Assembly: GCA_022641735.1 (NCBI GenBank)
Contig: JALCDQ010000001.1
Span: forward strand, 186,001-250,000
Length of the DNA stretch: 64,000 nucleotides
Reading direction: 5' to 3'
Source: Prevotella sp.
GTDB lineage: Bacteria > Bacteroidota > Bacteroidia > Bacteroidales > Bacteroidaceae
Shown here: one piece after another, positions 40,855 to 44,714 of the stretch
Numbering within the stretch: the stretch's first letter is position 1
Layout: each line of letters opens with the position of its first letter
Notes under the pieces: generated by a model
Seen by the model: only the letters and a program-made list of their open reading frames with translations
Told to the model about the DNA's origin: nothing
Databases searched by the model: none
Program-made: the position numbers and the translations under genes

Positions 40855-40975
40855 CGGACAAAATCGCACTAAAACCTTTTCATTTTTGCGGATAATAGGG
40901 TACTTTTCGGAACAAAAGGAGGAGAAGCCCCACCCTAACCCTCTCCGAAAGAGAGGAAACGAAAAACTCAAAACT

Positions 40976-41136
40976 ATTAACTATTACTTATTACCTATTA
41001 ACTTTCCAGCGTTTTTGCCAAATAGGGCATTTTTTTATTTTTTATTTTTTATTTTTTAGATTTTCGGTTTTGAAACTGAGAGCTCCGAGTTTCCTGCGGA
41101 AAATTAATAGGTAATAATTAATAGGTAATAGTTAAA
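40976..41136. repeat. Nested repeat block: inverted TAATAGGTAAT and T-tract repeat
   Basis: AACTATTACTTATTACCTAT (about 40978) and the inverse ATTAATAGGTAATAATTAAT (about 41105) flank a TGCCAAATAGGGCA hairpin and an ATTTTTT-type T-tract ladder (41016-41067). Confidence 0.55.
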
Positions 41137-41677
41137 ATTCTGAGAACTCAAAAACTTAAAAGCTCAGAAATACAGAAACATAAAATAAAATTTCTTTACA
41201 AAATTTCTTAAATTGACTTTTTCACCGATTTTTCCCAATTTTTATATTTTCCCGAAATTTCGAATTTCTTGCCTTTTTGCCCTCTTGACATGGCCCTCAT
41301 TTCGTTGTTCCGAAAAATGCCATTATCTTATCAACCCGAAAAATATAAAAATTAGAAATATCTTTTGCCGAGCAAAAAGCAATCGCTTACTTATTGAAAA
41401 TCAATTGATTAGAGAGTAAACAATCCTCTGAAAAATCTAAAAAATAAAAAATAAAAATAAAAATTTAGTACCTTGCACACCGACCCAATTTTTGTTAAAT
41501 CAGTTAAAAAGTAAATAATAATAGTAATAATATTATTAATATAATAATATAGTTAATATAATGATTATTAAGTAATTATAATATAATATATATAATAATA
41601 TTATAGTTAATAAGTAAAGATATTTTACCAAAAATCCACCTTTCTGCCTTTGGGTCAAAAATCCTCCTTCCGAATTC

Positions 41678-41728
41678 TGCCAAATAGAGCATTTTTTTAT
41701 TTTTTATTTTTTATTTTTTATTTTTCGG
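41678..41728 (+). repeat. Second direct copy of the TGCCAAATAG/T-tract repeat
   Basis: TGCCAAATAGAGCATTTTTT followed by three ATTTTTT units and TTTTTCGG; matches 41016-41067 at nearly every position. Confidence 0.7.
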
Positions 41729-41956
41729 TGAAATCGTCCATGCGTTTTTGTTTGATTTTTATTTTACAAATTGAAATTATTAATTTTTCAGGCTTTTAAG
41801 GAAAGGCCTTGAGGATAAAGCTTTGAGGCTTGTGGAAACAAGTACCTCCATTATAAATCTCCACAAGCACGATTCGATGGATTTCGATAAAAGGGGAAAT
41901 TGCATGGGAGAATCTTTTTTTATCTGTATTTCTTTGGTTTTTACTGAAAAAATGAG

Positions 41957-41964
41957 TATCTTTG
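41957..41964 (+). promoter_or_regulatory. -7 box of the Bro-N gene
   Basis: TATCTTTG, 45 bp before the start codon. Confidence 0.6.
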
Positions 41965-42009
41965 AAAAGTGAAATATTTAAGAAAACTTTCATCTGAAAA
42001 TTTATATCG

Positions 42010-42864
42010 ATGACAAAGAAAAACGACATCAAACTATTTGACAATCATAAGATTCGCACTGCTTGGGACGATGAGCATGAGAAGTGGTACTTCTCCATTG
42101 TTGATGTTATCGGCGTATTGACTGACAGCCCGAATCCGAGAAAATATTGGAGTGTTCTGAAAACGCGATTAAAAAACGAAGGAAGTGAGTTGGCTACAAA
42201 TTGTAGTCAACTGAAAATGTTGTCTGCTGACGGCAAGATGTATAAGACGGATGTAGCTGATACTGAGCAACTTCTGCGCCTCATTCAGTCGGTTCCATCA
42301 CCCAAGGCAGAGCCTTTCAAACTATGGATGGCAAAGGTTGCATCCGAGCGGCTCGACCAGATACAAGACCCGGAACTGAGCATCCATCAGGCACTGGCTG
42401 ACTATCAGCGGCTGGGCTATTCTGACAGCTGGATAAACCAGCGACTGAAGTCAATCGAGATACGAAAAGACTTGACGGATGAATGGAAAAAGCACGGACT
42501 TCAAGAGGGTACGCAATTTGCCACACTCACCGACATCATCTATCAGGCATGGAGTGATATGACGGCTAAGCAATATAAGGACTTCAAGGGGCTGAAAAAG
42601 GAGAATTTGCGCGACAACATGACCAACAAGGAACTTGTGCTCAATATGCTTGCCGAACTATCCACTAAGGAAATTTCCGAGAGCAAGCAGCCTTCTTCTT
42701 TTGCTGAACATAAGAAGGTGGCTCGTGACGGTGGAGAGATAGCCCGCAATGCCCGTATTGAATTGGAGGAGAAGACAGGCAAGGCAGTTGTGACGAGTCT
42801 GAATGCTAAAGACGGCATCATGCAGAAAGGCGGTATCGAAGACAAAACCGGCAAGGAAGAGTGA
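42010..42864 (+). CDS. Bro-N domain protein (DinD/antirepressor-like)
   Basis: 284 residues. The N-terminal 110 residues match the Bro-N pattern: IRTAWDDEHEKWYFSIVDVI, then PRKYWSVLKTRLKNEG and a DVADTEQLLRLIQSVPSPKA segment. The C-terminal half is helical and charged, as in DinD-like members and chromosomal Bro proteins of Bacteroidetes. Bro-N is a DNA-binding module of phage antirepressors and of the LexA-regulated DinD, but no other phage gene is near. The gene sits alone between two repeat-rich regions, which hints at acquisition. Target unknown. Confidence 0.85.
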   Translation: MTKKNDIKLFDNHKIRTAWDDEHEKWYFSIVDVIGVLTDSPNPRKYWSVLKTRLKNEGSELATNCSQLKMLSADGKMYKTDVADTEQLLRLIQSVPSPKAEPFKLWMAKVASERLDQIQDPELSIHQALADYQRLGYSDSWINQRLKSIEIRKDLTDEWKKHGLQEGTQFATLTDIIYQAWSDMTAKQYKDFKGLKKENLRDNMTNKELVLNMLAELSTKEISESKQPSSFAEHKKVARDGGEIARNARIELEEKTGKAVVTSLNAKDGIMQKGGIEDKTGKEE

Positions 42865-43153
42865 AAATTTTGCTATTGCAAAGATAGCCTCACCCTGACC
42901 CTCAATGGTCTTTACACCCCTCTCGGTCTCCCCCGTTATCGGGAGCAGAAACCCCGAAAGGGAAGGAACGAGAGCTTGGAGGACTCTGTATTTCGTCAAA
43001 ACTCAAGAGCTCAACTGTTAAAAAAATCAGGGGCTCAAACTTTTCTTCTCATTTTTTTTCTCGTTTTCTCGTTTTTATTCTCAATGTTGCCTGTTTTTTC
43101 TCGTTTTCTTTCTCAAAGTTGATTTTGCTATTGCAAAAGGGAGGAAAATGTTG

Positions 43154-43161
43154 TATCTTTG
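43154..43161 (+). promoter_or_regulatory. Promoter of repeat unit 1
   Basis: TATCTTTG with TTG about 20 bp upstream (TATTGCAAAAGG), a full Bacteroidetes -33/-7 pair. Confidence 0.6.
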
Positions 43162-43414
43162 TGGTAAGAAAAACGAGGGAAATTAATAGTTAATAATTAA
43201 GAGTTAATAATTGAAGGGCAGAGGGAACTGAGGACTCAGAGAACGCAATCTTTCGTCAAAAAACTGAAGGCTCAACTGTTAAAAAAATCTGAAGCTCAAA
43301 CTTTTTTGCCTATTTTTTTGCCGTATTGCCTAAATTTCCGCCTATATTTTTGCCGTATCGCCTAAATTTCCGCCGAAAATGAATTTGGCTATTGCAAAAC
43401 GAGGAAAAATGTTG

Positions 43415-43422
43415 TATCTTTG
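43415..43422 (+). promoter_or_regulatory. Promoter of repeat unit 2
   Basis: TATCTTTG with the same -33-like TTG; identical to unit 3 over about 45 bp. Confidence 0.6.
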
Positions 43423-43676
43423 TGGTAATTAGAAATTAGGAATTGAAAGGCAGAGGGAACTGAGGACTCGGAGGGTAATTAAAAAGAGGGAAGAGCTCGG
43501 AGAATGCGGTCTTTTCGTCAAAGAACTGAAGGCTCAACTGTTAAAAAAATCTGAAGCTCAAACTTTTTTTCCGAATTTTTTTCCGAATTTCCGAATTTCT
43601 TTCCGAAAGTGATGCCAATCTTCCGATTTTTTTTCCTAATGTTGATTTGGCTATTGCAAAACGAGGAAAAATGTTG

Positions 43677-43684
43677 TATCTTTG
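43677..43684 (+). promoter_or_regulatory. Promoter of repeat unit 3, probable promoter of the AraC gene
   Basis: TATCTTTG with a matching -33-like TTG. It is the last promoter before the AraC-family start, giving a leader of about 120 nt. Confidence 0.6.
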
Positions 43685-43811
43685 TGGTAATTAGAAATTA
43701 GGAATTAGGAATTAGGAATTAGAAATTAAAAGGCCGAGAGCTCGGAAGGCTCTGAGAAATCTGAAACTCAGAAGCTTTAAAATAAACTCAGAAACTTAAA
43801 ACTCTATCAAT

Positions 43812-44714
43812 ATGGATTCAGAACTTATATCTGACTTTAAGGCACGGCTCTCCTTGAGCCGCATGGAGGAATTCAGCAAGGAGCCCTCCGTCATCGACTA
43901 CGGCGCCATCGTCAGCACGAAAAGCGGACAGGTGGACATGATGGTCAACTTCAAGACTTGGCACTTGGAGGCGGGCAGCGTCATCATCCTCTTTCCGGGC
44001 GACGTGGTCAGCACGAAGGCTTCAAGCGACTTCCTTGCCGACGTTCTCTCCTATGACCCCGCCATGCTGCGCGAGGCGAGCCTGCAGATGGAGCATGCCG
44101 TCTATTCGCAACTGCGCGAGGACCGTTGCCGTGGTGACGAGCCTATCGTGTCGGACCTTGTCGGCTCGATGTTCCGCCTGTTGCACGTCTATTTCTCGCA
44201 GCCGGAGAACCGCTATGCCGACCAGATTGTGCTCTGTCAGCTCAAGGCTTTCTTCCTCGGCTTCTGCGACTTCATCGAGCGGCATCCGGAGAAGGGCGTT
44301 GACAGAATGGCTTCGCACAGGGTGAACGAGCTTTTCAATGAGTTCATGAGCCTCGTGGCTGAACATTATCGGGACTCGCGCGACGTCAACTATTATGCCG
44401 ACCAGATGAACATCTCGCCCAAATACCTTGGGCAAATCGTTCAGCAGAAGACGCAGCACAGTCCGAAGGTCATCATCGACCACTACGTCGTGATGCAACT
44501 GAAGTTGCTGCTGCGCACGAGCAGGGAGTCGGTGAAGCAGATAGCCTGGCAATACCACTTCAACGACACTTCCTTCTTCTGCCGTTACTTCAAGTTGCGC
44601 GCAGGCATTTCTCCCCAGCAGTATCGGGAGCTCCAGCCCTCCGATGCAGGGTTCAGAGAGTCAATTGAGCCGTCAAGAGGGTCTCCCTCGGGCGCAGTGA
44701 ATAAGCGTCGGTGA
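43812..44714 (+). CDS. AraC-family transcriptional regulator
   Basis: 300 residues. The N-terminal half is a cupin-like effector domain (about 20-105). The C-terminal AraC double helix-turn-helix covers about 185-285 (YYADQMNISPKYLGQIVQQK and VKQIAWQYHFNDTSFFCRYF). Compared with its upstream region the gene is GC-rich, like the TBDR-like gene it converges on. The two coding regions overlap by 62 bp at their 3' ends. Transcription probably starts from the repeat-unit promoters upstream. Target unknown; the adjacent efflux operon and the TBDR/GLPGLI module are candidates. Confidence 0.9.
   Translation: MDSELISDFKARLSLSRMEEFSKEPSVIDYGAIVSTKSGQVDMMVNFKTWHLEAGSVIILFPGDVVSTKASSDFLADVLSYDPAMLREASLQMEHAVYSQLREDRCRGDEPIVSDLVGSMFRLLHVYFSQPENRYADQIVLCQLKAFFLGFCDFIERHPEKGVDRMASHRVNELFNEFMSLVAEHYRDSRDVNYYADQMNISPKYLGQIVQQKTQHSPKVIIDHYVVMQLKLLLRTSRESVKQIAWQYHFNDTSFFCRYFKLRAGISPQQYRELQPSDAGFRESIEPSRGSPSGAVNKRR

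What the first reader, a model, noticed from the sequence alone, without database searches (positions are those of the whole stretch)
42869..43690. Tandem array of 261-bp units, each with a promoter and its own version of a low-complexity block
Seen: three full units and a remnant with two conserved blocks. Block 1 is TTTCGTCAAA..GCTCAACTGTTAAAAAAATC; block 2 is a full -33/-7 promoter ending GTTGTATCTTTGTGGTAA. Units 2 and 3 are almost identical in the blocks, yet the 70-76 bp between them is unrelated in sequence. Each interval repeats one short word of its own (TTCTCG, TTGCCG, TTCCGAA). Constant flanks, private repeated word and preserved length argue for selection or a copying process acting on that interval. 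Transcripts from units 1 and 2 would be about 140 nt up to a T-run; unit 3 reads into the AraC gene. Inference: phased promoters or a small-RNA family with exchangeable specificity. No open frame and no nearby reverse transcriptase.
Basis: partly seen in the sequence, partly recalled or inferred. Interest (0 to 1): 0.8.

Follow-up and report, generated by a model that had tools for sequence, protein, structure and literature searches.

The report
Promoter cassettes with swappable word arrays
One bacterium, likely a Prevotella relative, carries seven copies of a small promoter-like cassette in which a short DNA word is repeated at the same six or seven positions, about one turn of the helix apart, with a different word in each of four classes; the words would be docking sites for regulators, so the genome likely holds interchangeable switches with different addresses.

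Summary
The three 261/262-bp units are real and belong to a family of seven units at four places in this genome; blast found no copy in 397 sampled congeners (limited sensitivity). All seven have equal length, and in four word classes (TCTC[GA], TCCC[CA], TCCGA, GCC[TG]) the private word fills the same slots (spacings 12, 8, 12, 20, 12; the GCC class 12, 8, 12, 12, 8, 12), about one per helical turn, at a fixed distance upstream of a Bacteroidota -33/-7 promoter. Words are class-specific; the T-rich spacers are not. Arrays, promoters and flanks are mosaic between loci. In the window the units lie in a 2.8-kb insertion between an AraC gene and its divergent efflux operon, which are 144-237 bp apart in 14 relatives. 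All four unit loci lie downstream of a second repeat (R2); between them are defence-type genes at two loci, a weaker case at a third, none at the fourth. Best reading: dispersed promoter cassettes with class-specific, helically phased operator arrays (regulator unknown, binding untested). The small-RNA reading is weak. Rivals: bent DNA, or a neutral minisatellite-like repeat akin to BrickBuilt.

The parts
40917..43811 (.). Insertion between the divergent TolC-HlyD-MFS operon (minus) and the AraC gene (plus); left end approximate, right end not resolved
   Evidence: 14 of 44 fetched AraC loci keep the divergent pair with 144-237 bp between projected starts; here 2,996 bp; the left flank aligns to relatives up to TTTTCGGAACAA
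41186..41788 (+). R2, a second dispersed repeat of about 600 bp (approximate ends)
   Evidence: 11 long copies in this genome; extent from pairwise blastn
42010..42864 (+). Bro-N gene, between R2 and the units
   Evidence: Pfam Bro-N 1.2e-10; PADLOC PDC-S13 8.4e-139
42991..43040 (+). unit 1, block 1
43041..43122 (+). unit 1 word array: TCTC[AG] at 43047, 43059, 43067, 43079, 43099, 43111
43127..43161 (+). unit 1 promoter block (-33 TTG 43131; -7 TATCTTTG 43154)
43252..43301 (+). unit 2, block 1
43302..43383 (+). unit 2 word array: GCC[TG] at 43308, 43320, 43328, 43340, 43352, 43360, 43372
43388..43422 (+). unit 2 promoter block (-33 TTG 43392; -7 TATCTTTG 43415)
43514..43563 (+). unit 3, block 1
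43564..43645 (+). unit 3 word array: TCCGA at 43570, 43582, 43590, 43602, 43622; TCCTA at 43634
43650..43684 (+). unit 3 promoter block; its TATCTTTG at 43677 is the only TAnnTTTG on the plus strand in the 300 bp before the AraC gene
43812..44714 (+). AraC-type regulator gene downstream of unit 3
   Evidence: Pfam HTH_18 9.3e-17

Best explanation
The units are copies of a dispersed cassette, a Bacteroidota-type promoter sequence preceded at a fixed distance by six or seven helically phased copies of a class-specific word, and the words are predicted to be binding sites for regulators that would assemble side by side on one face of the DNA and set the promoter's activity. Shown from sequence: seven units, four word classes, one common lattice, fixed distance to the -33 box, mosaic combination of array, promoter and flanks, position inside an insertion next to the AraC gene, and co-occurrence with the R2 repeat. 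Inferred: that each class has a regulator of its own, that binding is cooperative, that the promoters fire, and that unit 3 has taken over AraC expression after the insertion. The cassettes probably spread by recombination between dispersed repeats; no transposase was among the ten neighbouring proteins scanned and no inverted termini were recognised.
For: Whole-genome pattern scan: seven promoter blocks with 0 mismatches and no others up to 3 mismatches; six of them have block 1 exactly 98 nt upstream. Word slots are the same in all four classes and absent from control lattices and other sequence. Between different modules of one unit, word columns agree at 0.92; between classes in the same module, at 0.54. 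In the three classes whose words share a frame, words agree at 0.93 within units and 0.62 between classes, while spacers show no class effect (0.78 and 0.78). Unit 1 and the TCCC unit differ at the middle word base in six of six slots and at no other core base; chance that six of 18 core differences fall in one column position 1.6e-4. G+C positions have a best period of 10.2-10.6 nt in 7 of 7 intervals; shuffle p at or below 0.006 in five, 0.034 and 0.056 in the two TCTC copies. The GCC-class array at C4:89k is 89% identical to unit 2's, while the 45-nt promoter stretch is 67% and the next 79 nt 33% identical, with both promoter boxes kept. The TCTC-class unit on C4 lacks block 1 (22%) but keeps array (95%), promoter (98%) and downstream (90%).
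Against: No regulator was identified; the one Bro-N gene is the only one in this genome, so it is no four-member set of readers. No expression or binding data. Four of seven units face another unit or, for the TCCC unit, a convergent gene, so they have no obvious gene of their own. Spacer agreement between classes is no better in the same module (0.78) than in different modules (0.76), so the shared spacers may be mere T-richness. Between same-class copies, word cores are spared only weakly: 2 of 20 differences lie in cores, about 4.7 expected (expectation is my arithmetic). metG, downstream of the C13 unit, keeps a promoter-like sequence of its own. Predicted curvature could explain the phasing without a specific protein.
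Confidence: 0.45

Rival explanations
1. Bent-DNA upstream element: the phased T-tracts curve the DNA and would help RNA polymerase or a nucleoid protein; the words are only G+C interruptions.
For: Predicted bends of 64-119 degrees against shuffle means of 31-38; four of seven intervals (both TCTC, both GCC) have P at or below 0.0033 on both measures (wedge values recalled). Spacers behave as generic T-rich DNA.
Against: The other three intervals are not clearly beyond shuffles (contour ratio P 0.06-0.19, bend P 0.03-0.07); curvature alone does not need the same word in every slot of a unit.
Confidence: 0.21
2. Neutral minisatellite-like repeat inside a MITE-like element (as BrickBuilt): internal duplication made the words, recombination spread the copies, and the promoter is incidental.
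For: Dispersed and intergenic, not found in sampled congeners; internal 20- and 32-nt tandem structure; other repeats in the intergenic DNA around it; weak sparing of word cores between same-class copies.
Against: Slot number and positions are constant across the seven units apart from the extra GCC slot; spacers are not homogenised with the words; at C4:89k the array is kept while promoter spacer and downstream diverged; no inverted termini or target duplications identified.
Confidence: 0.21
3. The arrays are protein-binding sites for recombination of small cargo islands (arm-type sites), with R2 at the other end.
For: All four unit loci have a same-strand R2 copy 0.13-3.0 kb upstream, and these are the four most alike of 11 long R2 copies; chance about 2e-9 under uniform placement (rough). 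Between them: Bro-N/PDC-S13, a type II restriction pair, four small genes with one weak restriction-enzyme match, and nothing.
Against: Arrays keep a fixed distance from a promoter, not from a recognisable crossover core; the other seven R2 copies have no unit, although three of them lie near contig ends; no recombinase among the ten proteins scanned.
Confidence: 0.08
4. Small-RNA family with exchangeable specificity.
For: Promoter boxes followed by about 140 nt without a clear gene up to a T-rich stretch.
Against: No structure beyond shuffles, no terminator-like site, no Rfam match in the window at gathering scores; the class-specific interval lies upstream of its own promoter, and single units have no following unit.
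Confidence: 0.05

Closest known systems
BrickBuilt MITE of Porphyromonas gingivalis (PMC4596501; abstract, sections 5 and 10, and part 1 of 2 of section 7 seen)
   Same: Dispersed, intergenic, species-restricted Bacteroidales repeat with an internal repeat block, constant flanks and promoter activity (shown there in E. coli)
   Different: BrickBuilt has one 23-nt repeat in varying number and IS5-like inverted ends; here slots and spacing are constant, the word differs by class, and no inverted ends were recognised
FopS small RNAs of Bacteroides thetaiotaomicron (PMC11697453; passages seen)
   Same: Multicopy non-coding family with canonical sigma-ABfr promoters in a Bacteroidota genome
   Different: FopS members are transcribed RNAs with a conserved seed; here the class-specific part lies upstream of the promoter and the downstream DNA shows no structure beyond shuffles
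Head-to-tail oligomeric winged-helix regulators on DNA, such as RdfS (PMC11963761; passages seen)
   Same: Model for a regulator that oligomerises along DNA near promoters of a mobile element
   Different: No such protein is linked to the units, and RdfS showed no consensus motif whereas the units have strict words
Phased direct-repeat operators of OmpR/PhoB-type or AraC-type regulators (recalled, no call)
   Same: Short direct repeats about one helical turn apart upstream of a promoter
   Different: Alternating 12/8 spacing and four word classes on one dispersed cassette; not matched to any known box here

Membership tests
BrickBuilt-like MITE | Terminal inverted repeats | tested here: inconclusive
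   Four inverted pairs in 42500-44200; the one that brackets the array has 76%-complementary arms inside the two flanking genes, the others start or end inside units; element ends are blurred by low-complexity flanks
BrickBuilt-like MITE | Multiple intergenic copies limited to one species | tested here: inconclusive
   Seven units at four intergenic loci; 0 of 397 other genus genomes by blast, but only two candidates per genome were scored and only 4 of 7 own units were returned
BrickBuilt-like MITE | Variable number of one tandem repeat | tested here: not met
   Six slots, seven in the GCC class, with a word that differs by class
Bacteroidota primary-sigma promoter | TAnnTTTG at -7 and TTTG at about -33 | tested here: inconclusive
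   TATCTTTG in 7 of 7 units; upstream box reads ATTG at N20 in the window's three units; consensus from passages of PMC7366714; no start sites mapped
FopS-type small RNA family | Discrete transcript | not testable with these tools
   No RNA data; indirect signs are negative: z -0.07 and +1.6, no terminator-like site
Phased operator array for an oligomerising regulator | Words on one face of the helix at fixed distance from the promoter | tested here: met
Phased operator array for an oligomerising regulator | Cognate DNA-binding protein | not testable with these tools
   No candidate could be tied to the words; the Bro-N gene is single

The most novel reading that the evidence does not exclude
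A genome-encoded set of interchangeable promoter cassettes with orthogonal operator codes: four paralogous polymerising regulators, each reading its own word on one shared helical lattice, so that any gene acquires a regulon by receiving a cassette and changes regulon by an array swap.
Probability: 0.17. Interest if true: 0.8.

Novelty: new variant of a known kind. Interest (0 to 1): 0.5.

Why it matters
Coordinated change of six or seven sites at fixed positions, seen in four classes within one genome, is what co-evolution of a regulator with its operator array should look like. If bound by class-specific proteins, the cassettes would be a natural set of orthogonal promoters for Bacteroidota and would show how a small insertion brings a ready-made control region to a host gene such as the AraC-type regulator here. 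If not bound, they are a clean case of phased curvature or of minisatellite-like evolution under a length constraint.

Tried and rejected
Rejected or led nowhere. Small-RNA family. Element in phages or plasmids: one short hit in each collection, in the repeat-rich right end of the query. Element in viral contigs: two matches to the block pattern and eight to the promoter end, none with an array when read. Exact block-1 pattern in genome contigs: 0. Block 1 with up to 2 mismatches in 59 other genomes: one match (L035), not a unit when read. Bro-N proteins as a reader set: one gene. Unit upstream of metG in 29 relatives: none in the up to 460 nt printed. One further block-1 match of the own genome (C2:111923, 3 mismatches) was not read; no promoter block was found there.

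Papers: the listings, and the 12 of 76 papers listed, showed none on such class-specific arrays in Prevotella; subscription papers and preprints are not held. PDC-S13 was in 0 papers.

Limits: one genome per species, so strain variation was not tested. Searches scored two candidates per genome and returned only 4 of 7 own units and 3 own R2 places, so absence in relatives is not proof. One search (promoter pattern, up to 2 mismatches) gave 47 matches in 43 of 397 other genomes; 29 of the 47 were fetched and read.

Full report
What is there. The window is 64 kb of one contig of a 2.56-Mb draft genome, 81.5% complete. The best named relatives of its AraC gene are an uncultured Prevotella and Segatella copri (58% and 52%), so the host is probably a Prevotella relative; no call names it. 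Three units repeat at 261- and 262-nt spacing. Each has block 1 (50 nt as cut here), an 82-nt interval and a 35-nt promoter block with TTG-N20-TATCTTTG.

Family. The promoter block as a pattern gives exactly seven places in the genome, all with 0 mismatches although up to 3 were allowed: three in the window, two in tandem on contig C4 minus strand at 260-nt spacing, one at C4:89344 and one at C13:33654. Six have block 1, each exactly 98 nt before GCTATTGCA (coordinates). The TCTC unit on C4 has none (22% identity).

Intervals. Without gaps and at zero offset the intervals fall into four classes: same-class copies are 89-95% identical and different classes 39-68%, against 30-37% for shuffles. 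The TCTC x GCC pairs are weakest (39-48%, about 1-3 s.d., slightly better one column off). Words lie at columns 7, 19, 27, 39, 59 and 71; the GCC class has them one column earlier plus a seventh at column 50. Counts: CTC in 6 of 6 slots in both TCTC copies, CCC 6 of 6, CCG 5 of 6 in both TCCGA copies, GCC 7 of 7 in both. Counting the empty slot, 64 nt over six steps is 10.7 nt per word, about one helical turn. The best G+C period is 10.2-10.6 nt in all seven.

Control. At least 5 of 6 identical 4-mers on this lattice gave hits only inside units in 123,703 own bases, none for 12 altered lattices and none in 198,418 bases of relatives (base count of own sequence), none in another 114,731 own bases and none in 417,124 bases of named genomes. 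Six of seven units are caught; unit 2 of the window is not, because the base after GCC varies. Of 31 promoter-like sites in own sequence, 6 have at least five copies of one 5-mer upstream, five of these being units; in the two sets of other genomes 1 of 76 and 1 of 67.

Words against spacers. Three 20-nt modules can be cut from each array. Between modules of one unit, word columns agree at 0.92 and spacer columns at 0.72; between classes in the same module, 0.54 and 0.66. In the three classes that share a frame, words agree at 0.93 within units and 0.62 between classes, spacers at 0.78 and 0.78. Duplication of whole modules should homogenise spacers too. A caution from the same call: spacers of different modules in different classes agree at 0.76, so the spacers may simply be T-rich, and the 12-nt gap agrees at only 0.25-0.42. 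Unit 1 and the TCCC unit differ in the middle word base in six of six slots and in no other core base. Between same-class copies the word cores are spared only weakly: 2 of 20 differences lie in cores.

Mosaic. Unit 2's nearest array is at C4:89k (89%), but its nearest block 1 and promoter are those of unit 3 (98% and 100%). At C4:89k both promoter boxes are kept while the spacer between them and the downstream DNA are unlike unit 2. The TCTC unit of C4 shares array, promoter and downstream DNA with unit 1, but not block 1.

Setting. In 14 of 44 AraC loci fetched from named genomes, those with the TolC, HlyD and MFS genes beside it, AraC is divergent from TolC at 144-237 bp; here the distance is 2,996 bp. 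The left flank aligns with relatives up to TTTTCGGAACAA, ending near 40916, and then breaks. The insert holds R2, a Bro-N gene and the units. Unit 3 has the only plus-strand TAnnTTTG in the 300 bp before AraC. At metG (contig C13) the upstream DNA of 29 relatives, up to 460 nt printed, shows no unit, and the host's metG keeps a promoter-like TAGTAATTTTGCAA nearer the gene. Four of seven units have no gene of their own directly downstream: units 1 and 2 and the C4 TCTC unit face another unit, and the TCCC unit faces a convergent gene.

R2. A second repeat of about 600 bp has 11 long copies here. The copies at the four unit loci are the most alike (94-100%; the other seven 85-90%), and each lies upstream of the units on the same strand, 134 bp to 3.0 kb away. 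Under uniform placement the chance is about 2e-9, a rough figure because repeats are not placed uniformly. Between R2 and units lie a Bro-N gene that matches PDC-S13 (8.4e-139), an EcoRI-type methylase (8.6e-122) with a GmrSD_N/HNH protein matching a type II restriction enzyme model (6.6e-91), four small genes of which one has a weak restriction-enzyme match (9.7e-6), and at C13 nothing. The other seven R2 copies have no unit.

Mechanism. Fixed distance to the -33 box, one-turn spacing and class-specific words are best explained by arrays of protein-binding sites upstream of a promoter. Everything about the protein is inference. Predicted curvature is high in the TCTC and GCC classes and modest in the others (wedge values recalled), so bending may be part of it or the whole of it.

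RNA. The putative transcripts of units 1 and 2 fold no better than shuffles, no terminator-like site was found and no Rfam family matches the window at gathering scores.

Comparison. BrickBuilt (PMC4596501) is the nearest published thing found: a dispersed, species-limited Bacteroidales repeat with constant flanks, an internal repeat and promoter activity in E. coli. It differs in having one repeat in variable number and inverted ends. FopS (PMC11697453) is a transcribed family.

Noticed in passing
window 41186-41788 (approximate): R2, a second dispersed repeat of about 600 bp with 11 long copies, an AT-rich inverted-repeat region and a (TTTTTTA)n block; no match in 298 other sampled genus genomes (limited sensitivity).
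   Followed up: partly
window 42867-42882: 16 nt identical to unit 1's -33 region directly after the Bro-N gene; on the minus strand it reads TATCTTTGCAATAGC, a -7-like box facing that gene.
   Followed up: no
L095 10326-12593 (contig C4, minus): EcoRI-type methylase followed by a GmrSD_N/HNH protein, a likely type II restriction pair, directly upstream of two units.
   Followed up: partly
window 43689-43728 and 43764-43801: Heptamer (AATTAGG)n and AAACTCAGAAACTT low-complexity runs; similar runs lie beside other units and in several other fetched stretches of this genome.
   Followed up: no
L037, L038, L040 (unnamed genus genomes), upstream of TATTGCA promoters: Other repeated words such as ATTCGGGACA and TGTCCAATTA near the same promoter type, without the 12/8 lattice.
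   Followed up: partly
L096 9443-13761 (contig C4): DUF3127 gene, an 826-aa gene with a sub-threshold DUF3987 match and smaller genes downstream of the single GCC-class unit, perhaps an acquired block.
   Followed up: no
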